A stretch of 64,000 nt of DNA from assembly GCF_032854445.1 (NCBI RefSeq), contig NC_088295.1, positions 24,229,385-24,293,384 of the forward strand, in the 5' to 3' direction. The translations under genes were made by a program, and so were the position numbers. The stretch is from Liolophura sinensis (Eukaryota; Mollusca; Polyplacophora; Chitonida; Chitonidae). Shown here in pieces: positions 4,289 to 51,203 of the stretch. The notes under the pieces were generated by a model. It saw nothing but the letters and a program-made list of their open reading frames with translations. It searched no databases and was not told where the DNA came from. How positions within the stretch are numbered: position 1 is the first letter of the stretch; every line of letters begins with the position of its first letter.

Positions 4289-7200
4289 CTACAATGCGAT
4301 GGTTATTTTCTTACTGCCTACATGAAATTTTGACATACAAGTATATGGTAATATATTATGACAAAACGCGGACAAATATTGTCAATTTGTTAAAACTAGT
4401 TTTTGTCAAAACTACACCGTGGGAAGGTGTGCCAGCAACCTGTGAATGGTCGTAGGCTTCCCCAGGGTTTTGTCTTGTTTCCTCCCACCATAATGCTGGT
4501 CGCCGTGGTAAAATGAAAAATTCTTGAGTACGGTGTAAAACACCAATCAAACATATAATACAAAGCCAGGCGTGCAAGTGCCGGTATTATAATGCATTGA
4601 GCCCAAGGATCACGAAGTTGTCTTAGACTTAAGTCAGAGTTAGGTATATCCTTAAAAAGGAACAAGCCGTTATCGACGTCTCACCGTGTTCTGCTCCACC
4701 CTGAAGATTCCGTATTCATCAGAAACCCACCACCTCCTGGTAAGTGAACTTTGACCCCCCGCTAGCAGGGATTGTTTTTATCAGGCTGTTCACGGGAGAA
4801 GACTCGACCTTCCGGAATTCTGCGACTCGATATGGGAAGATGGGATACCCCGAGGTTCTACTCTCTGAAAGTATGTCTACAGAGGTAATTGTGGAAGAGC
4901 TTGGTAGTCCAGTGTCGGTGGCCCGTACTTTGAGACTGTAGCGACCCTCAGGGATCGTTGTTTTTAGCGTTACGACACCACTGAGTGAATCCAGATTAAA
5001 AATGCTGCTTTCGCCACCCAGAAGTTCATAGGAGACCTTGTCCTGCAGATCGGCGTCTGTCGCCCAAAACCTGAATACCATGTCGCCAGCGGTGAGATCG
5101 GATGGCACAATGAAAGGAGACATGACAGCCTTGAACTCAGGAACGTTGTCGTTCACATTAATGATGTGCACAGTAATTAGAGTTCTCGAGGTACTGACCG
5201 AGGTCAACCCAGACAAAATGGCTCGAACAACCAAATGGTAATCCTGTTTCTTCTCATAATCCGGCGAGCTTGCCAAAATAATGCTACCTGCTCTGGATAT
5301 ATTAAACACGCCGAACCCACCCGAATCGATGGTAAACTCCAGTGCTGAGCTAGGGAGGGGCAAAAAGGGCACACCCAGTTCATACAGACTGGCAATCTTT
5401 ACACCAACCGGTTGGTTTTCATAGACTCTAGTTTCATATATCGTTTCGTCGACTTGAGGCGCTGTTGAACCTTAACAAAGACAGAAGCGTCAAATGGATA
5501 CCGGTATTCAGTATGAATGCATATAAATGGCATGCTCACGTGGGCTGAGTATTATACAACTCACACGTCGTGAAATTATGTACAAAGATAGGTTCTACCA
5601 GAACCAACAGGCGCAAAACTTGACTGAAGCTAAAAGAAGAGGTTAGTTATACAAGGGACATCCCTTGGTAATACATAACAGTCTGCAGTGTTTTGTCACT
5701 GGAAGCGTTCTTCTGAACTTACCACGTGGCCTTCTGGAATAATGCACCCGTAAAAACGACGTGTTAATAAACATCACAATTCGCGCGACGCGCTTCTAAA
5801 TCCACAAATGGCAGAACAAAAACTGAGGTAAAGAAAACTGTGTAATACATACTTTCGCATCTCAACCGATCTCCATTGGCGAAATATTCAGCTCTACAGT
5901 CACCACAGAAGCTAGCCCTGCAAAAAGAAAACATGTAATTCGATCATACTGGGAGCTGTTAGGCCTATAACTATGGTAACAACAACTGCAAAAAAAGGAA
6001 TCTCTGTCCAACTGAAAATTTCAAGAAAACTTCAAATTAATGCAATAAATACACGGCTTGATTTAATTCTCACATTTTCTTTAGGAATGTGTTACAAAAA
6101 TATGAATAAAATCCGTTGATGTAAACAAGGGCTCTAAAAGTGGTTTATCGACTTACACGCAGGTACCCTAAATTACACACATTCAGGTACCTCAACTTAC
6201 ACCTAGGTACCGTAACCTGCACACATTCAGGTACCGTAACTTACACCTAGGTACCATTACCTGCACACATTCAGGTACCGTAACTTACACGCAGGTACCG
6301 TAACCTGCACACATTCAGGTAGCTTAACTTACACGCGGGTACCGTAACATGCACACATTCAGGTACCTTAACTTAAACGCAGGTACCGTAACCTGCACAC
6401 ATTCAGGTACCTTAACTTACACGCAGGTACCGTAAATTACACAAATTCAGCTACTGCAACTTACAGGCAGGTACATACATTGCAAACATTCAGGTAACAT
6501 AACTTACATTTAGGTACCGTGATTTACATACATTTAGGTACCTCAATTCACATGCAGGCACAGCAACTTACACTTATTCGGATACCGTGACTGAAACACA
6601 GGTACTTTTACGTATACGAATGTACCGTAACTTACACGCAGGTGCCATAACTTGCACACAGATGGGTAGCGTAATTTACAGGCAGGTACCGCACATCCAG
6701 GTATCCTAACCTACACGGAGGTACCGTAATTTACAGCCAGACAGACAGCGTAACTTACAGGAAGGTACAGTAACTTACAACCAGATCGGTAGCGTAACTT
6801 ACACGCAGGTAGCGTTGCTGCGCAGAGCGCATTCTGGCAGGGCCTTACAAGGGTCCACTGCACACATCGCAATAGGTTGTTGAAGGGCGCACACTGGAAC
6901 AATCAGAAAAGGTCTAAATGTATTAGGCCACCTAAATAATCTATATAATTATGACGCGATCATCCATGGCAAAACGTTATGGATGGCTACAGCTTTGTAT
7001 ATACGTATATATAAGTTAATATATACGGCTTACGACGGGGAAAAGGTTTGCCACCACGACGTATCTTATCTTTGTTTATTGAACCTTTTCATGCTACTAC
7101 ACAGAAAAGGTAGTAGAGCTTCACCAGTCATCCATTTATCTGATTAATTACAAATTGTGTGAAATGAGACTTTAGACCAAACCACGAATGCTGCAGATAT

Positions 7201-9002
7201 TTCATCAGTTGATCTATACTATATAAACACCGGTAACCAATGATTTACAAGCAAGAAATAACAATTTACTTTTAGCCATCATTGATTGGAAACAATTGTC
7301 TTTCTCTTGTCAGGTGACAGCTCAAACACAGCTCAAACTACCACAAGTTCATGTATCTTAAATTACATTACGTTTACGTAATAAAGCAAAGTTAATTTTC
7401 ATAAAAAACACCTTTATCAGTAATATTACTAAATGTTTATATACTGTGTCTCCTTGTGGCAGGACGAGCCCATGCAGCCCAAGTGATGCCGCCACTGAAG
7501 TATCATGCCAAAGACACTACACATGACACCCCACCCAGTCACATTATACTGACACCGGGCCGAACAGTCCTGTTTCTTTCCTGTAGCCTCTCAGTGCTGA
7601 GCGCCAAACGAGGCAGCGACAAGTACCATTTTTAAAGCCTTTGGTATGGCCCGACCAGGATTTTATTTTGGATCTACTGACTACGAGGTGGACGCTCTAA
7701 CCATTAGATCACCGAAGCGAGATGCGATTATGCGTTTGCTTTTACTAACATACCCATATAAAGGTACAGTACGTCAATATGTAACTTACAACAGGATTCC
7801 CACTTCATATAGGGAGGTCAAAGGTGCATACCTTTGGATATCTCCAGGATGGCAGACGTAGACAGGTTCCCTACAGTGGCGACAACGTTGACTAATAAGG
7901 TCTGGTTGTAGAGTGGTAGCGCTAGTATATATACGGCACCTGGAAGCGTTCACAATGTCACACTTAGAAAACTACCAACATTAACGTCACATCTGGATAT
8001 TCTCAGGTGAACTGTCCGAAAAATATCATCCGAGGAAAAATTAACTGAAACATACGACTGTTTAAAATTTACCATTAAGACAAGAAATTTCAACTATTTA
8101 ATCAGGGAAGTATCATATATGAAAGACACATAATGAGCTCTTGCTCTGTTGTCTCAGGTACTGCGTATAGGTGTGCAAGTGCAAATAATTTGCCCACCTG
8201 TGAATTCATTGATTCCTATAGTGTCTGATCCTCGGATGGCATATCTCACTTGGTCCTGCATACTGGAAGCGGTGGCTGTCATCATCGTCACGAGACCACC
8301 TCTGGAAATGTTAGCCAAGACGTTGACAGTGTACCATCTTTTAGGGAAACTTAATGTCAGGCTGTTATCAGGGAGGATTTCCACATGAACATATGCCACA
8401 GACATGTTGTTGGGGGTTGATTGGAATGACGCCATCACAGTAAAAGTATGGCTGGTCATGTTTTTTAGTGGTCTTGTTACATATAAAGACCCGGTGAGTC
8501 TATCCACTCCAAAATATGTAGTGTTGACGGCGCTGTAGATGACGACTTCCCCCACCGGAACCGAGGCATACACCTGACGAACATGGAAAAAAGCACTGAG
8601 GATGGGAGCAGAAGAAATTTAGAGTTGTAAGGGTATTCGAACATGTTACTTCATTGAGCACGGGTGATAGTGGCATCAACCAAAAGTGATATTTGAATTA
8701 CAAGTAAATCACGCAGAAAGCACAATATCGGGTAGACCTGTAGAATTCACAAGGCAAGGAAAAATGCTTTCCGGTTTATTCATATAACAAGTGCATTGGC
8801 CATTGAAAACACTCTATATCTTCCACACGGTGTAAATGTCATGTCTCTACCTCACACGGTATTAATCCAAGGAAAGTAAGCATGAAGTCACCACTGCCTA
8901 ATTTGCCTAAGTAATTTTCGAATAGGTCTACTCCACAGCGCGCTTCCATCACTCCATCAGCAATACAGGGCAGGTGTGACGTCGGTTGGGAAACAAGTGG
9001 AA

Positions 9003-9079
<77 letters not shown>

Positions 9080-12000
9080 GATTCCTTCCTTTAAAGTTAG
9101 ACGCAAGAAGATGATCATATAAAGTCTCATTGAGTCAACTTCAGGAGGCTTTTCACAAATATGACTGAGCTCTCCGGATACCTGTCACAAATGCGTAACC
9201 TGTCCACTTACCTGTCCGACTATCGAGCCAGTAGTGGTCTGGTTAGACGCGAGCCTAATCCTGTAATGGGGAGATGTGAAGATGGGGCGTATGGTGGACG
9301 GTATGGGCGTGGGTTTCACTGGAACAGAGAACCATGATACCGTGACGTGAATATCTTGTCCCATAATTTATCAATACATGTGCAATAATAGCAAGGCGAC
9401 GTATTCTATGACGGAGCTGACAAATAGCACAGTTCTGCTAGAAATCTTATTGCCCTTGACCAGACGAGGGAGATTCCTTCATACAGTCTCCTCAACTCAT
9501 TAACACCATATTTATGTTCATTATACATGTATTGAAGCATTCTATAAATTTCATTATATGCTTCTGCAATGATATAATAATATAGTTGTTAATCACTGCG
9601 ATTAGAGATTTCGTTTTTGGCATGCGAATACGAATGCCTAATTGATGACATTTGGTTTCACAATCACCGTTCCACTATAGAACTAGAACCACGTAAACTT
9701 CGTTTGCACTAGGATTGTGGCAATTGGTAAAGTAAACTCTTCACGGTTTTGTTAGTTTCTTGTTTTTAGAGTAGGTTGTATGGTTTTACATCAGCTTATG
9801 TGATATTATACAAGTCTTTAAGTCTGTTTCTGTCTTATTATATTCTGTGTTGAGGAGGCTTTCTTTTTAAAATATACATAGATCTATCAGAGGCTACTAA
9901 CTGCACGATGACAAAATGTAAATGACACATTCGAGTTTTATACAAATCTGTGGAACCGTTGTTTGTTTCCCTTGTTCCTTTTGTATATTTGTTTATCTAA
10001 ATGACGTCTTCAAGGTTACATTGTCATATCAAAGCTGATGCCTTGTAGCAGAAATGTACAAATTGATTTCGTAAAATTTTGCGCAGGATAACTCACCTGA
10101 GCAGACGACTAAGTGGCCATTTTTGTAAAACTCAGCGTTACAACCTCCACAGTAATTAGCTCTACAACACAAGTCATTACACAGGTTTAGATTGGTTACT
10201 ATACACACATTCTAGAGCACGCTACAGAACACATTCAAACATCTTGTATAAATTGTCAGTCGAAATATCGGATAGTATACTGGAAGATTGACATTACCAG
10301 TCTGAAATACACTAAACCACGCAACATGTTTATCAAAGTGAAAGTGAAACAAATCAACATCACAAAAAAGAAGTCCACAACTTCAAAAGACGACTTTTAT
10401 GCGAAGTGATGTTACATATTAACCCCTGTAATATACAGGACAATTACATTTAAAACGTGTATTTTGACCACATTTTAATCTTTAAACGTAGCTCCACCTA
10501 AACCACTTCAAGCTTGGTTGACTGGAACTAGAATAAGGAAACCACCGTGAGGCCTTAATGCTACACATACACGCTCTCATGATATTTGCCGATATAAATG
10601 ATGGCGATCGGCGTAAAACTTATGAAACTTCATAGGGACAATGCTTTTAATGTGGTAAGCATATTCGTATTTTTAATATATAGTTTTAAACTCCGTTACT
10701 TGATGTGACAGATTGAAATATTCTTGTAAAAAAAGTAATAAATGTACTGTAGCAAGTTCAACTTCCGTGTACACCTATCATGTGCTGGATCAGAACTTAC
10801 AAGCAAGCAGCTCCCTGCATTTCCGGGCAATTTGAAACTGGATCTTGAATGGGCGACATACATGGATCCATCAAGCAGGATGCGATGGGCTCATTCGGGT
10901 GGCAAACTGAAGAGAAGATTGAGATAAAACGACAATATTTGTATATGTAGTCACTTTGACATATGCGCCCGTTAGTTTATAAAGAGGAAAAAAATATGCG
11001 CTCGTACCTTTATTTACGATCAAACGTGTGCCCACACTCACTGTTCCAAGTGTGGCTGTAAGGTACACAGAGGTCCTCTGCAACAAGGGCAACCTGTGAA
11101 CATAAACGTCACCTACAAAGAGGCAAAATAATTTAGGACCAGACAAATTCTGATTTCAAGAACGACCAAAGAGATTCCGTAACCGAACGATTTAACGCTA
11201 TTTTAATCTGTTATTATATTGTATTAACTAAATCTTGGTGAATACAACACATTAAATGTTATTTGCAAGGCTTAGACATATGTCGCATAAGTAAGATAAT
11301 GCAGTTACTGGTATCTATCATCTGTGAAGAGCTTAGGATTTGCATGTCCAAGATACCATATACAGTGTATGTAACTCACCCGTGTATTCGTCAATACGTA
11401 GAGAGCTGGAGTCATTCAAGTAATATTTAACTAGGTTCTGCTGCGATGGATCTTTGGCAACAGCACGGATAGTGGTCACGTGACCGTCTCTGGGTATATC
11501 GTTGTACACTTGTATCATGCCGGAATTTTGTAGCGTTAGGGCAGACGATTGGATTGTTGTGTTGCGGACAGAGACGAAAACCGGGGCGAAGGATCTGACT
11601 TGAGGGGTGGATTGGTAAGCCGCAGTCACTGTGAAGTTATGGTAGGTGGTGTTTCCCAGGGGTCGAGTCAGATACACATATCCACTGGTCCAGTTGACGT
11701 TGAAGTACGAGGAATTTAGTAAAGAGTACACCACCTGTTCACCGCCTAAGCCAGATGCATACACCTACACACATAGAGATATCATACAAAAAATACGTAA
11801 TTTTATGATACCATCATCACTATTGTATAATGCTTATATTCCGATTTTTACTCAGATAATGTAGGAAAATACCTTCCCACGTACAGAGGATACGATACAA
11901 CGATTATGTGATCTTTGTATTGAAATAATAGGGAATATTTTTACCATGGCACTAGAATGAGACAGGTATGGAAATCGGATAAGGCCATCGTCGCATCATC

Positions 12001-13924
12001 GTTCCATCGATCGGCGATGACACGATGATGCGAAGCAATGGTACGATGGCACGAAGCGATGGCACGATGGCACGAAGCGACAGCATGATGGCACGAAGGG
12101 ATAGTACGATGCCAGCAGTGTGTCATCGCAATGTGCCATCTTTTGTGCCATCGTGTCATCGCTTCATGGCATCGTCCAATCGCTTCGTGTCATCATGCTA
12201 TCGCGTCGTATCATCGGACCATCGCTTCGTGCCATCACCGGCCGATGAAACGATATCACAATAATGACCTTATCTGGCTTCCATAGGCAGGAGCGTACAT
12301 GTATAACATTTACTGAGGGTCATTCTGACATCTCACCTTAAGTTTGTCTCACTAATGCACTCTAAGTGGAATGAACTGTTATAGGGCAACTCTTCAAAAT
12401 TTCTCTTTTCCTTTGTCTTATTTATTTGTTTGTTTTTTCTTGCACTTCCACTTAGTATGTATCATGCTTTATATGTTGAGTCTCCTATAGACACACATTA
12501 CATGTGTCTAAAATAAAAGCATGGATATAAAATGCTCTGAATAAATGGTGTGTGTCGCGAAGTACGCTCAGGCAGATTACAAATTATATTTTTTCAAGAC
12601 AAGTTGGATGGGAAAAGGACGCTTAAGTTTGGTTAAAAGTCACGCAGATTTCCAGAGACAACTTACTCGGAGAACTGTGGAGTTGACGGTCAGATTGGAA
12701 GAAACTGCGGTGGTGTAGGACGATGTCCAAAAGTTTGGTTTGTCGGGTGGTGGTACACCTGTAAAAGAATTGTCAATTAAAACTATTACAAATCTATTAC
12801 TATAGAGGGACCTTGGTCACAATAACCGCTCTGTAAAGTTTCGCTTCGTCGACCACTTCTCCAACAACTTAAATATGGTGTGCATATATGCTCGCATACA
12901 TCAAGTGTGGAGAAGTTTGTCAGTAACTTGCCAAAAATCAGTGGTTTACGTCGGGAACGCTATCTGACTGCCATCGTGTAAGTGAGAAATTATTGAGACT
13001 GGTGTTAAGCAACAATCAAATAATAAATAAACATAAATCTTTGTTGCGACGAAACGGAAAATGATTTAATCCATCAGTTTGATACATGCATGTTTTGAAC
13101 TGAGAGAATCGCCATATATATAGGTGTAATCTGGGCTTAAATTCAATCAGCAGTATCCAATCACCACCAATTTATATGAACAATATCGATAAGTATTTAT
13201 CCAAGATAAATTAAGACACCATTTGTGATTTTCTGTTCTCGAATCGAAACTAGATACAGAGGGCAATGTGTACTTATAGCATACACGACCGATTAAATTG
13301 ATGCTTTGTTTTTTATTCTGCTGGAACCTGCATACCATATGCATGGGCTATGCTGATTCGTTCTCATGCATGATACAAGCAAACTCTACCAGGTCAAAGT
13401 GATTAGTATATGTATAACATGCTCTGCACGCGATCAACACAAACAACTTACCAGATGACGTCACATTCAGGTTCACGGCAACAGTGGCACTCTTGTAATG
13501 GTTATCAGTTACAACAGCATAAAACATGTATGGTTTGACCTGATCTTGGACCAGGTTTGTCACCGCGTAAAGTGTCCCAGATTGCCTGTCAATCGTGACA
13601 TCATCGGTGCCAACCACAGAAAACCAGAGTTTCGAGTTCCAAGGACTATACGCGCCGACCTGCAATAGAATGTTTGATGTTGATTATGTATCAGCCAGAG
13701 AATGTTGTTAGTCACGAATACACCACGCCGATACAGAAGTTCATCATGAAATATGAACGCAGAACTGTCCTCAAGAAATAGGCCATAACTGCGACTAATA
13801 TTTTAGTCCCAGACCATAAGAAGTAATTTTAAACAAACCTGTCCGATAACTTGTTCTCTTCCTGTGACGTTGAAGAGGTAGTTTCTCCGATAGAACATCG
13901 GTGCTGGCTGTTGTGAATTGTTTT
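1750..13924 (-). CDS. Cadherin-repeat protein with interspersed Cys-rich domains, 3' part of gene (17 exons)
   Basis: Joined from phase-compatible GT-AG exons, 5' to 3' on the minus strand: 13924-13839, 13659-13452, 12758-12667, 11764-11380, 11112-11008, 10906-10801, 10161-10097, 9318-9212, 8573-8198, 7939-7832, 6893-6803, 5917-5853, 5470-4685, 4288-4184, 3917-3777, 2291-2175, 1961-1902 (stop TAG). Every junction agrees in phase except at the out end of 5470-4685, where one base is extra. The first exon needs one base from an upstream exon, so the 5' end is missing. The N-terminal repeats are divergent and Asn-glycosylation-rich. From 5470 downward they are classical, with ENQPVG, VNDNVPEF, ATDADLQ and TDVNDNTPSF calcium-site motifs. 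Two copies of a small Cys-rich domain lie between. Cadherin repeats mediate Ca-dependent extracellular adhesion. The last exon ends in VLEVVVQ-stop with no membrane segment, so the product may be secreted. It could be a FAT/protocadherin relative or a matrix protein; I do not assign an orthologue. Confidence 0.85.
1768..1773 (-). terminator. Polyadenylation signal of the cadherin gene
   Basis: AATAAA on the minus strand, about 130 nt downstream of the TAG at 1902. It supports 1961-1902 being the terminal exon. Confidence 0.5.
4424..4565 (+). mobile_element. SINE family 1 fragment in a cadherin intron
   Basis: Holds TTTCCTCCCACCATAATGCT and ATTCTTGAGTACGGTGTAAA. It lies between exons 4685 and 4288. 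Confidence 0.75.
4685..5470 (-). CDS. Cadherin gene: large exon with classical cadherin repeats and an apparent +1 frameshift
   Basis: About 260 residues with two full cadherin repeats and the start of a third. Visible motifs are YENQPVG near the start, ILASSPDYEKKQDYHLVV, HIINVNDNVPEF at the first repeat boundary, FWATDADLQDKVSYEL, and NLDSLSGVVTLK followed by RATDTGLP. The reading frame runs to a stop just after FTYQEVVGF. If one base within the C-run at 4725-4733 is discounted, the frame continues as SDEYGIFRVEQNT straight into the donor GTGAGA at 4684. Exon length is 786, whereas the flanking phases (2 bases in, phase 0 out) require 785. This is therefore a real frameshift or a sequence error. 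Confidence 0.85.
5853..6893 (-). CDS. Cadherin gene: Cys-rich domain, copy 2 (split over two exons)
   Basis: Exon 6893-6803 (91 nt, phase 1 in, 2 out) encodes VCALQQPIAMCAVDPCKALP, then ECALRSNATC. Exon 5917-5853 (65 nt) adds ASFCGDCRAEYFANGDRLRC. It shares the C-x8-C-x3-DPC and CG-x-C-x-AE-aromatic-aromatic-x-NG pattern with copy 1. The exon at 6893-6803 lies in a frame different from the longer shadow ORF there. Its donor (6802-6797) sits at the edge of a 0.65-kb minisatellite that reuses the donor sequence. The downstream exon junction (GAA A|GT) splices in phase to 5470. Confidence 0.75.
6151..6815 (-). repeat. 22/44-bp minisatellite built from an exon donor site
   Basis: Two alternating 22-bp half-units (one with ACACATTCAGGTACC, one with ACACGCAGGTACC) make a 44-bp unit. 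The array decays toward 6480-6780 and its right end is the real junction of exon 6893-6803. The string ACTTACACGCAGGTA at the junction recurs at least five times in the array, so on the minus strand it carries repeated GTAAGT donors each preceded by CCTGCGT. Confidence 0.88.
7451..7722 (+). mobile_element. Dispersed repeat family 2, diverged copy
   Basis: TGCTGAGCGCCAAACGAGGC, the ATTATACTGACAC segment and CCGACCAGGATTTTATTTTGG match family 2. In the cadherin gene intron between 7832 and 6893. Confidence 0.6.
7832..9318 (-). CDS. Cadherin gene: second copy of two-repeat block (three exons)
   Basis: Exons 9318-9212 (107 nt), 8573-8198 (376 nt) and 7939-7832 (108 nt). They encode IRPIFTSPHYRIRLAS at the start of one repeat, then YFGVDRLTGSLYVTRPLKN, then the next repeat with the turn GINEFTG at a phase-1 junction followed by AVYILALPLYNQTLLVNVV. 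Each exon pairs with one in 12758-11008 in length, phase and sequence (VYAS...GE starts both long exons). N-glycosylation sites recur. Canonical calcium motifs are missing here too. Confidence 0.8.
9006..9076. repeat. (TA)n microsatellite
   Basis: About 35 TA units in a cadherin intron; the Tyr-Ile ORF there is an artefact. Confidence 0.97.
10097..10906 (-). CDS. Cadherin gene: Cys-rich domain, copy 1 (split over two exons)
   Basis: Exon 10906-10801 (106 nt, phase 1 in, 2 out) encodes VCHPNEPIASCLMDPC followed by more cysteines. Exon 10161-10097 (65 nt, phase 2 in, 1 out) continues with ANYCGGCNAEFYKNGHLVVC. The pattern is C-x8-C-x3-DPC ... C ... C, then YCGGC, aromatic pair, N-G, and a final C: about eight cysteines in 55 residues, as in a disulphide-knotted extracellular module. 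Neither exon is visible as a long ORF; they were found by phase matching between neighbouring cadherin exons. I do not know a formal name for this domain. Confidence 0.75.
11008..12758 (-). CDS. Cadherin gene: first copy of two-repeat block (three exons)
   Basis: Exons 12758-12667 (92 nt), 11764-11380 (385 nt) and 11112-11008 (105 nt) encode two divergent cadherin repeats. The first begins around PDKPNFWTSS and continues with YFNVNWTSGYVYLTRPLGNT. The second has the turn LRIDEYTG immediately at a phase-1 junction, followed by DVYVHRLPLL. There are many N-x-S/T sites (NSS, NWT, NTT, NFT, NDS), which suggests an extracellular glycosylated surface. The block matches 9318-7832 exon for exon, with the same phases (in 1, then 0, 1, 1). 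Confidence 0.8.
11966..12284. repeat. Long imperfect palindrome made of a CGATGGCACGAAG short repeat
   Basis: The left arm (11966-12110) carries GATGGCACGAAGCGA repeats. The right arm (12120-12284) carries the reverse complement TCGCTTCGTGCCATC. The outer ends also match as inverted repeats: TATGGAAATCGGATAAGG against the reverse of CCTTATCTGGCTTCCATA. It lies in an intron of the cadherin gene. Probably a foldback/MITE-type element expanded inside. Confidence 0.85.
12955..13036 (+). mobile_element. SINE family 1 tail fragment
   Basis: ATCGTGTAAGTGAGAAATT to the AATAAATAAA tail. In a cadherin-gene intron. Confidence 0.55.
13452..13924 (-). CDS. Cadherin gene exons 1-2 of those visible: one divergent cadherin repeat
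   Basis: Exon 13924-13839 (86 nt, needs one base from upstream, ends phase 0) reads into PAPMFYRRNYLFNVTGREQ, a typical cadherin repeat start. Exon 13659-13452 (208 nt) completes it with VTIDRQSGTLYAVTNL and ends in NLNVTSSG. The DRQSGTLY turn is the usual beta-strand D/E region of cadherin domains. Canonical calcium ligands (DxNDN, DAD) are absent. Donor and acceptor sites are canonical (GTTTGT, GTAAGT; AG after pyrimidine runs). No signal peptide is seen, so more exons lie upstream. Confidence 0.75.
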
Positions 13925-34310: not shown

Positions 34311-35700
34311 ACGTGTAGGAGCTGGCTGTGTCAGAAGGAATCCCTGATTCCATGCTATGATTCCTGATGGGGAAGTGCTTGTCTTGTTGTGAACCAACCA
34401 GCCCGTCCTGTGAGCCTACCTTCACCAGCAGTCACCCTCCACCGCCATCTTCCCACGCTCGTGCCGCACCCCTTGTACCCCCCATCCACACCAAGGATGT
34501 AAAACAAGGCTCGGGGGATCGAGAGATTCCAGCGCTGCCTCCAGGAAAATTGCCTATTCCGCCCTCGGAAAAGAAGATGTTCGGACAGTACCCCAAACTA
34601 CCACCAATCCTCAAACCCAATAATGGTGACACAAAACGGCTGTCTGTTGTGTCGCGTGAATGTTCAGACACTAAAATTCAGGCCTTGTTTGAACAATACA
34701 AGGAACCCAATGAAGAAGCCATGTTAGCTGAAGGCATTGAGAAGTTTTGCTCAGATTTAGAAGTTAAGCCTGATGAATTCATAGTGTTGGTGTTAGCATG
34801 GAAGTTCCAGGCTGAAACCATGTGTAAGTTTACCAGAGAGGAATTCCTCAGTGGCTGCAGAACTCTCAAAGTTGACACAATCAAAGGGTTACAGCTCAAA
34901 TTTCCAGAAATGCTTAAGGATGTTCAAAATAAGCAACTATTCAAAGACCTGTACCGATGGACATACAAGTTTGGCCTGGATGCTGACACTGGGCAGAAAA
35001 CACTGCCAATTGAAATGGCCATTGGGCTGTGGAAACTGGTGTTCTCCAAAAATCAGCCCCCAATTCTTGAATGCTGGCTAGAATTTCTCGAAAAGCATCC
35101 TAACATACGTGGCATTCCAAAAGACACTTGGGACATGTACCTTAACTTTACAGAACAAGTAGGGGATGATCTGAGTACATACGATGACACGGATGCCTGG
35201 CCCAGCCTTATTGACGACTTTGTAGAGTATCAAAATGACAGACAAAATCAGAATGTCTAGGTTAGCTCATCAGATGTTTTACCACACTCATCACTTGCAT
35301 TGGTCCCACTTAACACAAAAGATATACCAATCCTCATCATGGTTTTATGACAAGCCTGCATTTTACAGTCCCAGATAGGCTGTCTCTGACTTCAGTTCAG
35401 TTTACTTTTATTTAAAACTCTCTTAAGTATTGACTACACATGTACATTGCTGACATAAAGTTAGTTAATGCTGTAGTAAATATCTGTATATTGCGCTATT
35501 TTAGCAATTTCTTGGAGTTTTAAGTATTGTTTTAAAATATCCATCCATTGTGTTTTAAGTACTAAATGTGTATTTCTTGAATGTGATTTTTGCCAAGTGT
35601 TTTGCCTGTCATCATGACAACAAGTGAATACATATGCAAACAATTTGTATATGAATGCTGCCACCTTGTTGGACGTTTGTGTTGTGAAATTAAACTTTAA
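34311..35700 (+). CDS. DCUN1D3: DCN1-like protein 3 homologue (neddylation co-E3), coding 34367-35260
   Basis: A 297-residue protein in one coding exon, about the length expected for the vertebrate protein. The N-terminus MGKCLSCC carries a myristoylation glycine and nearby cysteines that could be palmitoylated, the feature separating the DCUN1D3 type from other DCN1-like proteins. A Pro/Ser-rich linker (residues 10-90) is followed by the DCUN1/PONY domain from about residue 103 (IQALFEQYKEPNEEAML) to about 288. It contains EFIVLVLAWKF, KFTREEFLSGC, LYRWTYKFG, LPIEMAIGLWKLVF and the C-terminal DTDAWPSLIDDFVEY, the cullin-binding acidic/DAD-like patch. The family promotes NEDD8 transfer to cullins; the lipidated type acts at membranes. 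An acceptor (TTACAG at 34305-34310) 56 nt before the ATG shows an upstream 5' UTR exon. A possible ATTAAA polyA signal is at 35689. Confidence 0.92.
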
Positions 35701-39819: not shown

Positions 39820-40800
39820 TCAAGGAAGAATCTTAACATTGCAAGGGCATGCAATGTATAAGCAGGCATTAAGGTCCAGCGAACGAAACTCTGTAGTGTA
39901 AGAAAGTGATAGAGTCCACTCAAGGAAACTCCTGTAAGAATGCTTAAAACGCATGTCAAGGAAACTCACGTGCAAGCAGGTGTTGGGGTCCACTAAAGGA
40001 AACTTTTTTTTTCAGACAGGCGTCGTGGTACGCTGAAGAAAAACTTCATTATAAACGGGTATTAGGGCCCACCCAAAGATAACTCCACTGTAAACAGGTG
40101 TTAGAGTACAGTTAAAGACATTCTATTACAAGCAGATTTCAGGGTCCACCGAAAGAAACTCCAGTGCAAACGGCCTTCAGAATCCACAAATGGAAACACC
40201 AGTGTAAGGTCCCCCCTATAGGCAGACTTAATGAGGCCAGTTAAGGAAACTCCTTTGTAGACGCGCGTTAGGTTCCACTCAAGGAAAACTCCAGTGTAAG
40301 GGGCATTAGGTTCCACTCAAGGAAAACTCCAGTGTAAGGGGGCATTAGGTTGCACTCAAGGAAAACTTCAGTGTAAGCAGGTAGCATGGTTCACTCAAGG
40401 AAAGCTTCAGTCAGTTTAAGCAGGTAGCATGGTTCACTCAAGAAAAACTTCAGTCAGTGTAAGCAGGTAGCATGGTTCACTCAAGGAAAGCTTCAGTCAG
40501 TGTAAGCAGGTAGCACGGTTCACTCAAGAAAAACTTCAGTCAGTGTAAGCAGGCACTATTATCCACCGAAGGAGACGCCATGCCATGTATACATGTACTC
40601 CAGTTCAAGCAAGCGTTAGACTGCATTTATGTGCAAGAAGGCTTTGGAGACCCAAGCAAAGAAACGCCAGAGTAAACAGGCGCCGGAGTCCACTCAAATA
40701 AACTCAAGTGAAAGCGGACTTCACGGTCCACTCATGGAAACGCCAGAGTAAACATGCATTAAAAGGTCCGCCAGAGGAATCCCCAGAGTAAGTAAGGGTC
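39820..40800. repeat. Degenerate 39-43-bp minisatellite
   Basis: The unit is centred on GGTTCACTCAAGGAAA followed by CTTCAGTCAGTGTAAGCAGG. It is most regular at 40240-40560 (43-bp spacing, as from GCAGGTAGC at 40377 to 40420 to 40463), with older diverged copies on both sides. No gene covers it. Confidence 0.85.
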
Positions 40801-44813: not shown

Positions 44814-47800
44814 TCAGCTTCCAGTTGTCTCCCTTTGCTTGTATACTTGGTTCAGGGCATCTCTCAGCCTACAGAGAGTCTGGAAGTGGGTTTGCATCTT
44901 AGCCACACATTTGGTCAGGTGATCCAGTACAGAATCCTGTAAATTATATATAAACATGTCAACCATATTCAAACTAAATTATGGTTTTAGTGAACAATTT
45001 TAAACCAATCCAATATAAGGATTTTATATATGGATTTTAATATAATGTAAAAGGATGGACACTGAAAAAACCTTTTTATTCAAGATTATGACAGGATAGG
45101 ACAATTAACTCTTTAAATCTTCAGCATCACATAAATCAATATTGCTCACTCAGTTTGAGAAGCAGCTGTTTGTATCAACTCAGACATTTTTATGCACAGT
45201 GTCCTATAGATTAGAAACTGCAGTAAAGTGTGCAAGTAGACCTGTAGTAACAAACTTGTGACTTGCATTGTCAGCACTGACAGCCCAGTCTACTATGTCT
45301 GTACAGGTGGTGATTTGTGTGACAGTAGAAGTGTACTTACAAACTCATATTGTGCAAGATCAGCACTGACAGCCCAGTCTACTGTGTCTATAGAGGTGGT
45401 GATTTGATTTTTTTTTCTTTTTTGATTGTTGTTTTACGCCATACTCAAGAATATTTTACTTATACGACAACGGTCAGCATTATGGTAGGTGGAAACCAGG
45501 CAGAGCCAGGGGGAAAACCATGACCATCCGCAGGTTGTTGACAGACCTTCCCACATACGGCCGGAGAGGAAGCCAGCATGAGCTGATCTTGAACTCACAG
45601 CGACTGCATTGGTTAGAGGCTTCTAACCGACTGAGCCACGGAGATTTGTGTGATAGCAAAAGTGTACTTACAAACTTGTAATGAGCAAGGTCAGCACTGA
45701 CAGCCCAGTCTACTGTGTCTGTACAGGTGGTGATTTGTGTGATAGTAGAAGTGTACTTACAAACTTGTAATGAGCAAGATCAGCACTGACAGCCCAGTCT
45801 ACTGTGTCTGCACAGGAAGTGACTTGTGTGATAGTAGACGTGTACTTACAAACTTGTAATGATCAAGATCAGCACTGACAGCCCAGTCTACTGTGTCTGT
45901 ACAGGAAGTGACTTGGGGGATAGTAGAAGTGTACTTACAAAGTTGTAATGATCAAGATCAGCACTGACAGCCCAGTCTACTGTGTCTGTACAGGAAGTGA
46001 CTTGTGTGATAGTAGAAGTGTGCTTACAAACTTGTAATGATCAAGATCAGCACTGACAGCCCAGTCTACTGTGTCTGTACAGGAAGTGACTTGTGTGATA
46101 GTAGAAGTGTACTTACAAACTTGTAATGGGCAAGATCAGCACTGACAGCCCAGTCTACTGTGTCTATAGAGGTGGTTACTTGTGTGGTAGTAGAAGTGTA
46201 CTTACAAACTTGTAATGAGCAAGGTCAGCATTGATAGCAGAGTCTGCTACAAACTTGTAATGAGCAAGTTCAGCACTGACAGCCCAGTCTACTGTGTCTA
46301 AGGGAGGTGACTTGGGGGATAGTAGAAGTGTACTTACAAACTTGTAATGAGCAAGATCAGCACTGACAGCCCAGTCTACTGTGTCTGTACAGGAAGTGAC
46401 TTGTGTGATAGTAGAAGTGTACTTACAAACTTGTAATGGGCAAGATCAGCACTGACAGCCCAGTCTACTGTGTCTATAGAGGTGGTTACTTGTGTGGTAG
46501 TAGAAGTGTACTTACAAACTTGTAATGAGCAAGGTCAGCATTGATAGCAGAGTCTGCTACAAACTTGTAATGAGCAAGTTCAGCACTGACAGCCCAGTCT
46601 ACTGTGTCTAAGGGAGGTGACTTGGGGGATAGTAGAAGTGTACTTATAAACTTGTAATGAGCAAGATCAGCACTGACAGCCCAGTCTACTGTGTCTGTAC
46701 AGGAAGTGACTTGTGTGATAGTAGAAGTGTACTTATAAACTTGTAATGAGCAAGATCAGCACTGACAGCCCAGTCTACTCTGTCTGTACAGGAAGTGACA
46801 TGGGGGATAGTAGAAGTGTACTTACAAAGTTGTAATGATCAAGATCAGCACTGACAGCCCAGTCTACTCTGTCTGTACAGGTGGTGATTTTTGTGATAGT
46901 AGAAGTGTACTTACAAACTTGTAATGATCAAGATCAGCACTGGCAGCCCAGTCTACTCTGTCTGTACAGGTGGTGATTTTTGTGATAGTAGAAGTGTACT
47001 TACAAAGTTGTAATGATCAAGATCAGCACTGACAGCCCAGTCTACTCTGTCTGTACAGGTGGTGATTTTTGTGATAGTAGAAGTGTACTTACAAACTTGT
47101 AATGCTCAAGATCAGCACTGACAGCCCAGTCTACTCTGTCTGTACAGGTGGTGATTTTTGTGATAGTAGAAGTGTACTTACAAAGTTGTAATGATCAAGA
47201 TCAGCACTGGCAGCCCAGTCTACTCTGTCTGTACAGGTGGTGATTTTTGTGATAGTAGAAGTGTACTTACAAACTTGTAATGATCAAGATCAGCACTGAC
47301 AGCCCAGTCTACTGTGTCTGTGCAGGAAGTGACTTGTGTGATAGTAGAAGTGTACTTACAAAGTTGTAATGATCAAGATCAGCACTGACAGCCCAGTCTA
47401 CTGTGTCTGTACAGGAAGTGACTTGGGGGATAGTAGAAGTGTACTTACAAAGTTGTAATGATCAAGATCAGCACTGACAGCCCAGTCTACTGTGTCTGTG
47501 CAGGAAGTGACTTGTGTGATAGTAGAAGTGTACTTACAAACTTGTAATGAGCAAGATCAGCACTGACAGCCCAATCTACTGTGTCTGTACAGGAAGTGAC
47601 TTGTGTGATAGTAGAAGTGTACTTACAAACTTGTAATGGGCAAGATCAGCACTGACAGCCCAGTCTACTGTGTCTATAGAGGTGGTTACTTGTGTGATAG
47701 TAGAAGTGTACTTACAAACTTGTAATGAGCAAGGTCAGCATTGATAGCAGAGTCTGCTACAAACTTGTAATGATCAAGATCAGCACTGACCGCCCAGTCT

Positions 47801-50800
47801 ACTGTGTCTGTACAGGAAGTGACTTGTGTGATAGTAGCAGTGCACTTACAAACTTATAATGATCAAGGTCAGCACTGGCAGCCCAGTCTACTGTGTCTAT
47901 ATTGGTGGTAAGGTCAGCCAGCATGGTTGAGACTTGAGGGAACAGTTCACTGGCAAACCTGCCAAACACAACAAATACTGGTATATTGGTTCATCCTTTG
48001 ACTCATCTGGCCTCTCTGTAGATATAATTACATGTACATGCAGTTAATATCCTATAACCATTCACTTTTGTACACAAGTTGTCACAATATGTGTTTTATG
48101 TGCTTATTGCAAAATTGCTGAACTTGGAAGACCTCAACAAAATTTATTATTTTCTGAATACAGCCTTTGAACATGGTATTTTCTGAATTCAGCTTTCTGT
48201 AGGTTAACTATAACTAACTGGCACTCTGCCTTGTTCACCAATAAGACAATACCTGTAGATGTGGCTTTAATCAGATTACTAGTGGGGATTTAAAGCACTA
48301 AAACATATACCGATTAGCAATTGACAGCTGTTTTTAAAAAGCTTAAACCTCCATACTATTAAGAGACAAGCCTTGTAGCTGTGTTCTCTACTGAAGTGTA
48401 TGAATACTAACATGTGGTAGTTTGCCTCCAGTTTGAGGAATTCTCCAATATAAGGCTGCTGTAATCGGTTCAGCAAAAACTCTTTTCCACTGATGATATT
48501 TTGTAGGTAGTTATTCAATTCATTTATTTCTTTCACTTTCACTTCTGGAATTCAAACAAAACAGATACATAAGTGCTTATAGTAATATCTCAGCAACTCA
48601 ATGTTAATGATAAAACCAGACATGTTTACAGCTTGCAATAAATAAAATACATAACATTATACACACAGAGAAGACATTCTGTTTGGCCTCAAAACATGCT
48701 CTTTTTGTAATATTTCTACGTTCAAAATGAATCTACATGAACATATACTGTAAAGTACTTATTATTCGCTGGAATTTATTTTTGCAATTTTCTCCAAAAC
48801 TATGTTTGCGGGAATTAATTTTCGCGTACTTAAGAGAATAGTGAAAAACAAATCTTAAAATCTTCCAAGATATGATATGGCCAAAATTATTCAAGCACGT
48901 CAAACAGGTATCACCATGGGTGGTTTTAGTCCTCCTTTGTTTCCTGCGTTGTTGCTAACCCTCCTGATCTGGATCAGAGATTAAAACAATGGGGGATGGC
49001 TTATTACTACATAAGAAGATTACTTTCTTGCCTATCATGAACAGTGCTCAAACAGGTGTCAGTTCTTGTCGAATCATTGATGAGAACTTTTAAACACCTG
49101 GCAAAGTGTCTTGTCACCTGTTGAGCAGTTCAACACAAAACATATGAATTCACCATTATGGGCACCAGTCAATCATTCTTGATCAAGAAACGTGGTAAAT
49201 TTTGCATTGTTTTGAGTTTTAATCATCCTCTATAGCAGGTCAGAAAACGCAAACATTGCCACAGCTGTCAATCGGCCATTGTGCTGTTGTACACACTTCA
49301 CCGTTTGTTAGAAGCTCACTCATTGCACCACAGGAGAGACACAGCCAATGGATTAGCGTGTATCATTAGAAGCCAGCACGTGCTGGTATCTTTTCTTTCA
49401 CTTTACAGGCATAGCAAAGATTGATCAAACTAAAAACTCCCACTTTGTTTTATACCCACCAAGCCTTAGCACCAGAGTTTGTATATATATAAACCATAAC
49501 CTTCCCTGGTGTTAAAAAATTTAGCGGGCCCCTCGGGCTTTCTTAGCAGAACTCCCGTCACCCTGGCAAAGATTTCACTTCATTATTACTACTACCTGTA
49601 GTATGTGATTCGATATTGGATATTTTTTTCGCTGGAATTATTTTTCACGGTAAATTACTGCTGCAAAATCCGCGAAAATTAGTTCCAAGCAAAAATAAAG
49701 TACTTCACAGTAAGTACTACATCCATATCTGGATTTTATGAGTAAATATAAAAGTTAGACCATATTTAAAAGATTAAGCATAAATTTATGACAGTGAATC
49801 AATACAGCTAAAAAAACAGTCCAGCGATAACCCTTGATGTCTCTTTTTGCATTTTATTTACATGTACTGTAAAATGAAAAAATGTAAGAAAAACAAAAAA
49901 AAAACATCATGAAAACCCGTCTATGAATCTGCATGGAATTCTCTTTCAGATAATGCATACTTTATTTAAAGCTGTTCCATTCCCTTACATCAGAGATAAA
50001 AGACATGCTTATACACATGTATTGCACATGCTTTTTAATCAGACCAACCCATACCTAACATATCCAATTGAGTTATGTCCCTTGTTTCTTTATCGTCCAC
50101 AAATTTCTGCACTTCAAGGAGAACCTATCAATATAAAGAGTTTTACATCAGGCAATAATAAACTTTATGCTGGTACCCAGTTGTCCACTAGCTGTTTGTC
50201 AATGAACCTACCGGGGGCTTTATTTTCGTCACTTCAGAATCTAAACGCATTCCTGCAGATTTGTCTTAATGGAATCCATCAGAATCTAGCCTAAATCTTT
50301 ACATGTACAACAAATCACATGTCCCAGCCATGTCAAGGTTTTAACCCTTAACATTATAGTCAACATTTAAGCCTAATGCCCACTTGTTCAAAGAAGGAAG
50401 CTAATATAAATCCGAAATTTGAAAACATTTGGTAATTCTGAAAAATATTTTTGTGACTTTTTGTGGGAATGCAAGGAGATTTCTGTAGTTTTGGCTCATG
50501 GGAGTCATGATGATATGCAGCAAGCACTATGGTGGGAGGAAACCGGGCAGAGCCCACGACCATCTACAACTTGCTGGAAGACCTTGCACAGCTGGAGAGA
50601 AGCCTGCTGGCTTGAGCTGTACTTGAACTTACAACGATTGCATTGGTGAGAGGCTCCTGGGTCCTTGTGCTGCACTAGCACAGTAACCACCAGTCCACAG
50701 AGGCCCCTACCACATGTACAAATAGCTACATGCACTAATCCAGAGTGCACAGCAGTAAATTTTAACAAACCCACACATATACTACCTTATTGTGTTCCCT

Positions 50801-51203
50801 TCTCTTTGTTGTAATTTCTCTCAGAAGTGAAATCAGTTTTAAAGAGGGGAGTTTTTCTTTTGTCTCTTTCATCATATCTGCACATTCATGATCTGTTCTC
50901 TGAAGCAAAAAAATATGGCAGTGAGATTACATTCCTTAACCATCCTGCTCCAAACGTTGCAAGTTCATGACGTAAACGTAACTTCATTCCAAAACAAGCA
51001 GCTCAGCGAAATGCATTGAACCGTTCAATGAACGTTAATGTTGTTTTCGTTAGAAATAAAAACATTCTCGGACATACCCGAAGATGGCCTGTTTTCTCGG
51101 CCAACAACAAGGCATTTGTCATCGACCTGGAGATTGTATTGTCCCAGGGATTGTGGGACTCGTCTACATCAATGCCAATACTTGATAAAATTGACATTTG
51201 CAT
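44814..51203 (-). CDS. HAUS2: HAUS augmin-like complex subunit 2, six coding exons
   Basis: Exons 51203-51078 (126 nt), 50899-50786 (114), 50106-50055 (52), 48544-48412 (133), 47958-47850 (109) and 44936-44814 (123, stop TGA). All phases agree and give 218 residues; vertebrate HAUS2 has about 235. Family signatures are HNPWD near residue 18, ISLLREITTKRREHNK, the segment DDKETRDITQLDMLE in the 52-nt exon, NELNNYLQNIISGKEFLLNR, PYIGEFLKLEANYHM, FASELFPQVSTMLADL, and the C-terminal heptads VAKMQTHFQTLCRLRDALNQ. The protein is predicted mostly helical and coiled-coil. HAUS2 is part of the augmin complex that recruits gamma-tubulin ring complexes to spindle microtubules. I chose the first ATG (51203-51201); a second in-frame ATG follows two codons later. 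The last intron holds a large array derived from the 47958-47850 exon. Confidence 0.85.
45240..47849 (-). repeat. 89-bp tandem array of HAUS2 exon/donor copies (about 26-28 units)
   Basis: The unit is 89 bp (for example, successive ACTTAC motifs at 45844 and 45933). On the minus strand each unit holds an AG, about 47 bases equivalent to the 3' end of the HAUS2 exon 47958-47850 (encoding VDWAVSADLAHYKF in the parental frame), a perfect GTAAGT donor and about 40 bases of intron. The genuine exon and its donor at 47849-47844 form the right-hand end of the array. Units differ by a few substitutions (GATCAAG/GAGCAAG, TACTG/TACTC). Some are shortened, for example the AGCATTGATAGC variants near 46226, 46529 and 47736. 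A SINE interrupts the array at 45405-45648. Confidence 0.93.
45405..45648 (-). mobile_element. SINE family 1 copy inserted inside the HAUS2 array
   Basis: The same head, B box, body and A-rich tail as at 22095-22376, inserted between GTGGTGATTTGATT and GATTTGTGTGATAGC of one 89-bp unit; GATTTG is repeated on both sides as a likely target duplication. The array therefore predates this insertion. Confidence 0.88.
48746..49712. mobile_element. Non-autonomous DNA transposon (MITE) in a HAUS2 intron
   Basis: Terminal inverted repeats: TACTGTAAAGTACTTATTAT at 48746 against the reverse complement of GTACTTCACAGTA at 49700-49712. They continue inward through CGCTGGAATT and TTCGCG blocks on both sides. 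The ends are TA, as after Tc1/mariner-type insertion. No coding capacity is visible between them. Confidence 0.75.
50512..50705 (-). mobile_element. SINE family 1 copy (tail truncated) in a HAUS2 intron
   Basis: ATGGTGGGAGGAAACCGGGC through TTGCATTGGTGAGAGGCTCC to CCACAGAGGCCCC matches family 1 on the minus strand. It lies between exons 50786 and 50106. Confidence 0.8.

What the first reader, a model, noticed from the sequence alone, without database searches (positions are those of the whole stretch)
45240..47958. HAUS2 intron is an array of about 27 ready-made poison exons
Seen: each 89-bp unit on the coding strand has an AG acceptor, about 47 nt copied from the 3' end of exon 47958-47850, and a perfect GTAAGT donor. 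Inclusion after that exon (phase 0) would read ACA CAG TAG, an immediate stop, in both common unit variants. Inference: any inclusion gives nonsense-mediated decay or a truncated augmin subunit, so unit number could tune HAUS2 output. Alternatively the units are silent because the short spacing prevents exon definition.
Basis: partly seen in the sequence, partly recalled or inferred. Interest (0 to 1): 0.85.

Follow-up and report, generated by a model that had tools for sequence, protein, structure and literature searches.

The report
Exon-edge minisatellite ("mirage") in HAUS2
In this chiton a stretch spanning the end of one gene piece and its splice signal has been copied about 25 times into the neighbouring intron; similar arrays sit at other genes of the same genome, the kind was first described in amphioxus, and it looks like a tolerated by-product rather than a built-in off switch.

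Summary
The array is real and the gene is HAUS2 (six exons, 224 aa, Pfam HAUS2 115 bits). Intron 5 holds 25 units, not about 27: 22 with a 47-nt core, three with 92 nt. AG and the TAG stop are kept in 25 of 25, GTAAGT in 21 of 25. "Ready-made poison exons" is not supported. The unit acceptor is no better than chance (61% of random 89-nt intronic windows hold an AG as good) and appears to descend from exon 5 coding sequence. In 22 of 25 units the stop lies 38-41 nt from the junction with the last exon, too close for classical EJC-dependent decay. Splice sites are not detectably conserved among units. The array belongs to a class: of 33 other donor-carrying arrays fetched from this genome, 16 likewise start as tandem copies of a predicted coding exon's 3' end plus its donor. 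The assembly matches the chiton Liolophura sinensis. This anatomy is known as "mirages" in amphioxus, where RT-PCR suggests normal splicing. Best reading: a neutral exon-edge minisatellite spliced out from the first donor. Leaky use of decoy donors is untested.

The parts
51078..51203 (-). HAUS2 exon 1 (proposed start ATG at 51203)
   Evidence: spliced model
50786..50899 (-). HAUS2 exon 2
   Evidence: spliced model
50055..50124 (-). HAUS2 exon 3
   Evidence: spliced model
48412..48544 (-). HAUS2 exon 4
   Evidence: whole-genome Pfam search PF15003 hit at window 48411-48542, 31.4 bits; model
47850..47958 (-). HAUS2 exon 5; its 3' part and donor TTT|GTAAGTGC are copy 0 of the array
45252..47807 (-). 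intron-5 array: 25 units (22 with a 47-nt core, 3 with 92 nt), each an AG, an exon-tail copy and (23 of 25) a GT donor
47716..47807 (-). unit 1, compound (47 + 45 nt)
46516..46607 (-). unit 14, compound (92 nt); units 14-15 recur as units 17-18 at an offset of 310 nt
   Evidence: coordinates, identical rows
46206..46297 (-). unit 17, compound (92 nt)
46648..46783 (-). units 12 and 13, whose donors have lost GT (ATAAGT)
45408..45642 (-). SINE-like insertion (tRNA-like head, A-rich tail) between units 23 and 24; ends approximate, read by eye
   Evidence: SINE label recalled, not searched
45252..45387 (-). edge units 24 and 25, the least similar to the exon core (0.87 and 0.79)
44814..44936 (-). 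HAUS2 exon 6 with the normal stop; encodes part of the Pfam domain (domain ends at residue 214 of 224)

Best explanation
The array is an exon-edge minisatellite of the kind called a mirage. A tandem duplication spanning the 3' part of exon 5, its donor and the first part of intron 5 seeded it (inferred from sequence); it then grew by ordinary tandem-repeat turnover (inferred from a recurring two-unit block and diverged edge units). Exon 5 remains copy 0, keeps its own good acceptor and its donor at 47850, and that first donor is spliced to exon 6, so the whole array leaves as intron (inferred, no RNA seen). The downstream copies are decoy donors with weak, accidental AGs, not evolved exons. 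The same has happened at other exons in this genome, which argues for a mutational process tolerated by splicing rather than a device for regulating HAUS2.
For: Gene and exon chain in frame. Unit = exon tail + donor + intron head, best copy 109/118 identical over 60 nt exon and 58 nt intron. The unit AG corresponds to exon-internal ATAG; units 2, 15, 18 and 24 still show ACCACC..TATAG as in the exon. Unit acceptors at chance level. Donor plus AG positions not significantly less variable than the rest of the unit (permutation p 0.15 for 25 units, 0.16 for the first 22); two units have lost GT. Class: of 33 donor-carrying arrays fetched, 16 contain at least 10 nt of the tail of an exon called by eye from frame, acceptor and donor (L008, L009, L010, L012, L013, L014, L018, L020, L026, L029, L030, L031, L032, L038, L042 with lengths; L043 read by eye and TRF); one more (L023) is an acceptor-plus-exon-head array. 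Nine of 21 peptides tested hit Pfam at 1e-3 or better: PTR2, DUF4457, class-III aminotransferase, saposin B, GH31, FAA hydrolase, MH2, UDPGT, DAGK accessory; the aminotransferase and FAA hits are below Pfam's own cut-offs. Donor arrays are about as frequent as single-site counts predict: 18-19 CAGGTAAGT arrays against 6 reversed-motif arrays, singles 9807 to 4854 (array copies included), p 0.40-0.52. Amphioxus mirages: Adh3 data and globin RT-PCR suggest no interference with splicing (passages of PMC3087553 and PMC3902484).
Against: No transcript of this gene was examined, so use of the first donor is inferred. The unit donors score the same as the real one (0.3), so competition is possible. 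AG and TAG are kept in 25 of 25 units, which a selective reading could claim, although so few positions give no power. Splice scores rest on recalled generic matrices. Of the 33 sampled donor arrays 14 showed no exon at their edge, and exon calls were by eye. The edge comparison with control arrays was not significant (9 of 33 against 0 of 10, Fisher p 0.09).
Confidence: 0.8

Rival explanations
1. Leaky decoy donors. Exon 5 is sometimes extended to a downstream copy of its own donor, or the intron is retained. The reading frame then meets the TAG 48 nt past the normal donor, at least 83 nt before the next junction, so these transcripts are open to decay. Output of HAUS2 would fall slightly with copy number.
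For: 21 of 25 units keep GTAAGT and those score the same as the real donor. Read-through gives VSALLLSHKSLPVQTQ*, and from the coordinates the stop lies 83 nt before the first downstream junction. Extending exon 5 to the donors of units 1-3 gives exons of 243, 332 and 421 nt (computed).
Against: Amphioxus genes with mirages are reported to give regular mRNA. Such arrays occur at other exons here about as often as single-site counts predict, which suggests weak or no cost.
Confidence: 0.13
2. Poison-exon array: units are used as cassette exons and tune HAUS2 through nonsense-mediated decay.
For: AG and stop in each unit, GT donor in 23 of 25.
Against: Acceptor strength at chance; 22 of 25 units fall short of the 50-55-nt distance needed for classical decay (rule recalled); no detectable constraint on splice sites; spacing leaves introns of about 40-42 nt between most neighbours and 42 nt before unit 1, below the usual minimum (spacing, limit recalled).
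Confidence: 0.04
3. Selected non-splicing role, for example a dense row of U1-binding sites that protects the transcript from premature polyadenylation.
For: 21 perfect GTAAGT in about 2.6 kb.
Against: Occurrence in unrelated genes and no detectable constraint on the donor hexamer.
Confidence: 0.02
4. Assembly artefact that inflates or collapses copy number.
For: Reference built from 14x HiFi data with haplotypic duplications purged (passages of PMC11068029), so one allele is shown.
Against: Units carry distinct variants, a SINE-like insertion and diverged edges; mean HiFi read length of 8,347 bp exceeds the array.
Confidence: 0.01

Closest known systems
Mirages: minisatellite-like tandem duplications of exon/intron boundaries in amphioxus genes (Adh3, globins BflGb6 and BflGb9, troponin C, PGBD5)
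   Same: Unit spans an exon/intron boundary with its splice signal; authentic boundary is one copy at the array edge; both exon edges can be affected (donor type in HAUS2, acceptor type at L023); homogenised centre with diverged edge units (passages of PMC3087553 and PMC3902484; HAUS2).
   Different: Host is a chiton, not a cephalochordate; HAUS2 has 25 units against 6 and 3 in the two haplotypes of amphioxus BflGb6; 16 further donor-type cases among 33 sampled arrays point to a genome-wide class. Splicing outcome untested here.
Internal tandem repeats at exon-intron boundaries of human duplicated genes (PMC2812944)
   Same: Tandem units at an exon-intron boundary (abstract and passages seen).
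   Different: There the repeats lengthen exons or make novel introns in transcripts; average unit 30 bp repeated 4 times.
Dual-specific splice site arrays (polyubiquitin UBC, VCX3A; PMC10809524)
   Same: Repeated unit carrying a splice site in tandem (passages seen).
   Different: Requires AG|GT usable as donor and acceptor; in HAUS2 every unit has TTT in front of the donor position, so it cannot work that way. Arrays of the CAG|GTAAGT type here (e.g. L030) could.
Poison exons (recalled)
   Same: Inclusion would introduce a premature stop.
   Different: Weak accidental acceptor, stop too near the last junction in 22 of 25 units, no detectable constraint, no evidence of inclusion.
Intron gain by tandem duplication around AG/GT proto-splice sites (Rogers model, as cited in PMC3087553)
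   Same: Tandem duplication that contains splice signals.
   Different: No new intron is seen in the HAUS2 model; an existing intron is lengthened.

Membership tests
Mirage (exon-intron boundary minisatellite) | Tandem repeat spans an exon/intron boundary, unit holding exonic and intronic parts | tested here: met
   60 nt exon + 58 nt intron, 109/118 identical; unit-by-unit tables
Mirage (exon-intron boundary minisatellite) | Authentic boundary is a copy at the edge of the array | tested here: met
   exon 5 is copy 0 at the 5' edge; HAUS2 model through exons 5 and 6 scores 115.4 bits
Mirage (exon-intron boundary minisatellite) | Tandem-repeat turnover: concerted centre, diverged edge units | tested here: met
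   mean pairwise identity 0.91 among units 1-23; edge units 24 and 25 at 0.87 and 0.79 to the exon core, others 0.89-0.94; units 14-15 identical to 17-18
Mirage (exon-intron boundary minisatellite) | Regular splicing not disturbed | not testable with these tools
   no RNA reads available here
Mirage (exon-intron boundary minisatellite) | Length (and somatic) instability | not testable with these tools
   one locus found in the assembly
Poison exon | In-frame premature stop on inclusion | tested here: met
   25 of 25 units
Poison exon | Stop more than 50-55 nt before the last junction (rule recalled) | tested here: not met
   38 nt in 21 units, 41 nt in 1, 83 nt in 3
Poison exon | Credible acceptor | tested here: not met
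   61% of 2521 overlapping 89-nt intronic windows have a best AG equal to or better than the unit median (matrices recalled)
Poison exon | Conserved splice sites or element | tested here: inconclusive
   no excess constraint among units, p 0.15-0.16; no orthologous genomes available
Poison exon | Observed inclusion or decay | not testable with these tools
   no RNA data
Dual-specific splice site array | AG|GT core at the splice site of the unit | tested here: not met
   TTT precedes the donor position in 25 of 25 units

The most novel reading that the evidence does not exclude
The chiton genome carries hundreds of exon-edge arrays, and their unstable copy number acts as a genome-wide set of splicing rheostats: each added decoy donor slightly raises mis-splicing of its host gene, HAUS2 among them, so that array length is a source of heritable expression variation.
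Probability: 0.1. Interest if true: 0.85.

Novelty: new member of a known kind. Interest (0 to 1): 0.45.

Why it matters
For HAUS2 itself little changes: the array is best read as tolerated. The class matters more. Seventeen exons seen here (HAUS2 and 16 others), and by extrapolation many more, are followed by tandem copies of their own donor, at L043 about 74 copies in the stretch fetched. At L029, L030 and L031 perfect CAG|GTAAGT copies stand behind a weaker presumed genuine donor (the sampling favoured strong copies). That is a natural experiment on how a spliceosome picks the first of many equal donors, and on whether such arrays seed new introns as proposed for amphioxus. It also extends to a mollusc a phenomenon that, under the name mirage, my searches found only in cephalochordates.

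Tried and rejected
Poison-exon reading: tested by acceptor scores, stop-to-junction distance and site-wise variation and not supported. Enrichment of donors in minisatellites: the GTAAGTA triple pattern was less frequent than its reversed control (924 + 1007 against 2367 + 2310 matches); counted by hand as arrays in the first 100 listed matches it was 16 in 7.87 Mb against 10 in 6.36 Mb (p 0.56). The fuller CAGGTAAGT motif gave 18-19 against 6 arrays over C1, C2 and the first 23.3 Mb of C3 (p 0.015-0.023 at equal rates) but 0.40-0.52 once single-site counts are allowed for. So I do not claim that arrays seek out splice sites.

Control arrays: for 10 reversed-motif arrays, 18 of 20 edges could be used (one edge of L048 and of L050 lay outside the fetched stretch); ORF pieces of 28 aa or more on both strands gave 0 Pfam hits at 0.01. 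Before I dropped 9 of these pieces (3 of 11 at L044, 2 of 10 at L045, 4 of 12 at L049) to shorten the query. The donor-side peptides were chosen by eye, so the comparison is neither blind nor equal; 9 of 33 against 0 of 10 is not significant (Fisher p 0.09).

Repairs: one search printed wrong read-through distances for some loci, HAUS2 among them (a later frame overwrote the right one); one search replaces them. The first alignments of L032 and L037 overlapped the query itself; one search replaces them (L032 11 nt of exon, L037 none, L040 5 nt). Of the 33 arrays, 14 showed no exon at the edge (L011, L019, L021, L022, L024, L025, L027, L028, L033, L034, L035, L036, L039, L041); L037 and L040 are borderline. 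The six-frame strings built were not used in any search.

Literature: eight searches on the phenomenon and one for the organism. Searches found 719 and 77 papers, of which only 15 and 12 were listed. Among the listed papers only PMC3087553 and PMC3902484 use the name mirage; several listed ones (e.g. PMC4039745, PMC3045353, PMC2395259) I did not open. The original mirage paper (doi 10.1093/nar/gkf386) is not held; I know it only through PMC3087553.
Full report
What is there. On the minus strand the window carries a six-exon gene (51203-51078, 50899-50786, 50124-50055, 48544-48412, 47958-47850, 44936-44814). The exons join in frame with GT-AG introns into a 224-aa protein that matches Pfam HAUS2 at 115.4 bits over positions 2-190 of 191 and augmin subunit 2 chains of solved structures by sequence (best E 1.5e-11). 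A search of the whole assembly with PF15003 returned one match, exon 4 of this gene. So the HAUS2 assignment holds.

The array. After exon 5 itself, intron 5 holds 25 units. Twenty-two have a 47-nt exon-like core; three are compound, 92 nt, with an extra 45-nt exon-like piece. All 25 are preceded by AG and contain the TAG; 23 have a GT donor and 21 the full GTAAGT. A SINE-like element separates units 23 and 24. Units 1-23 average 91% pairwise identity, and the last two are the least like the exon core. The duplicated tract is longer than the core: the best copy aligns to 60 nt of exon 5 and 58 nt of intron. The 17 nt in front of the core resemble the exon upstream of its internal ATAG (identity 35-71%, with ACCACC..TATAG kept in units 2, 15, 18 and 24), so the unit AG seems to be exon sequence that came along, not a copied acceptor. 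That step is inference from modest similarity.

Would the units work as poison exons? With recalled generic matrices, four of five genuine HAUS2 acceptors score so high that about 1% or less of 174 null AGs match them; the fifth is weak (22%). The median unit AG is matched by 14% of null AGs, and 61% of 2521 overlapping 89-nt intronic windows contain an AG at least as good. The unit donor equals the exon 5 donor in score (0.3). The stop after inclusion lies 38 nt (21 units) or 41 nt (1 unit) from the junction with the last exon and 83 nt in the three compound units. By the 50-55-nt rule (recalled, mammals; invertebrate decay may differ) most single inclusions would escape classical decay and make a protein cut before exon 6, which encodes part of the conserved domain. 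By contrast, use of a downstream donor would keep the first 48 nt of intron, reach the TAG of unit 1, and leave at least 83 nt to the junction. So if the array costs anything, decoy donors are the likelier route. Variation gives no sign of constraint: donor and AG positions are not significantly less variable than the rest (p 0.15-0.16).

Not unique to HAUS2. The unit sequence was found only here. But I searched the assembly for three spaced copies of donor words. GTAAGTA at 67-97-nt steps gave 1931 matches (reversed control 4677), CAGGTAAGT at 39-69-nt steps 382 (control 176). I fetched the 16 arrays that I counted in the first 100 listed matches of the first search (L008-L014, L018-L026) and 17 of the 19 clusters in the first 100 of the second (L027-L043, with L051 as upstream flank of L043; one further cluster is L011 of the first set, and one near C3:16.447 Mb was not fetched). 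In 16 of these 33 the first copy is the 3' end of what looks like a coding exon (open frame, acceptor upstream, donor at the end), with 10-72 nt of exon inside the unit by alignment in 15 and about 36 nt by TRF bounds in L043 (views). Two more are borderline (L037, L040), one (L023) is an antisense acceptor-plus-exon-head array at a saposin-like exon, and 14 showed no exon. Nine of 21 peptides tested hit Pfam at 1e-3 or better: POT transporter (L009), DUF4457 (L014), class-III aminotransferase (L018), saposin B (L023), GH31 (L030), FAA hydrolase (L038), SMAD MH2 (L040), UDP-glucuronosyltransferase (L042) and diacylglycerol kinase accessory domain (L043); those of L018 and L038 are under Pfam's cut-offs. 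Twelve, among them HAUS2 exon 5 on its own, had no hit. Scaling 16 arrays per 100 matches to 1931 matches, with 9 of 16 exon-anchored, suggests some 170 such arrays for this one word and spacing; this is a rough extrapolation from the start of one scaffold.

How it arises. Array counts do not show a preference for splice sites: relative to how often the words occur singly (9807 against 4854, array copies included), donor arrays are about as frequent as expected. The simplest account is a tandem-duplication process that samples the genome, exon edges included, and is tolerated there because the exon keeps its acceptor and the first donor is used. In all 17 arrays read (HAUS2 and 16 others: the 15 aligned ones and L040; L043 and L037 were not read), going on past the exon donor meets a stop, in eight within 23 nt, so heavy use of later donors would be damaging; their persistence suggests it is rare. 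This is inference without RNA.

Organism. The assembly has 609,464,459 bases in 632 contigs; contigs C2 and C3 have 28,395,274 and 27,489,247 bases, equal to scaffold_10 and scaffold_11 of the chiton assembly in PMC11068029 (609.5 Mb, 632 scaffolds; passages read). A correction renames the species Liolophura sinensis (PMC12441733, read whole).

Known kind. [quoted passage not shown] PMC3902484 (passage read) reports splice-site-spanning repeats for PGBD5 and cites troponin C. HAUS2 in this chiton meets the anatomical features of a mirage; its splicing and instability could not be tested. In eight searches of the held library, two with capped listings, I found the name used only for cephalochordates; related human cases are in PMC2812944. 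So the mollusc occurrence and the genome sampling may be new, but most subscription papers are not held.

Verdict.

Noticed in passing
L009, L010, L014, L018, L030, L038, L042, L043 and others (window's assembly, scaffolds C1-C3): Exon-edge arrays like the HAUS2 one at other predicted genes; at L043/L051 about 74 copies of a 44-bp unit lie in the fetched stretch behind a diacylglycerol-kinase accessory exon.
   Followed up: partly
L023 (C1:5097000-5100900): Antisense array whose unit is an acceptor plus the head of a saposin-like exon, so 5' exon edges are amplified too.
   Followed up: partly
L009 and L030: Array periods of 96 and 39 nt keep the exon's frame open for 545 and 275 nt past the donor; retention would add protein repeats.
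   Followed up: no
L029, L030, L031: Downstream copies are stronger donors (CAG|GTAAGT) than the presumed genuine exon donor (GTAAAT or GTATGT); the sampling favoured strong copies.
   Followed up: no
window 45408-45642: SINE-like insertion inside the array; a related fragment seems to lie near 50500-50740 in HAUS2 intron 2 (by eye).
   Followed up: no
window 34361-35260 (+): 299-aa ORF with a Pfam Cullin_binding domain (113.6 bits).
   Followed up: partly
window 4719-11764 (-): Three ORFs with Pfam cadherin matches (two below the cut-off) with minisatellites nearby (6151-6815, 12014-12236).
   Followed up: no
window 39900-40800: Diverged 39-43-bp minisatellite with GTAAG-like words; I did not test whether an exon lies at its edge.
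   Followed up: no
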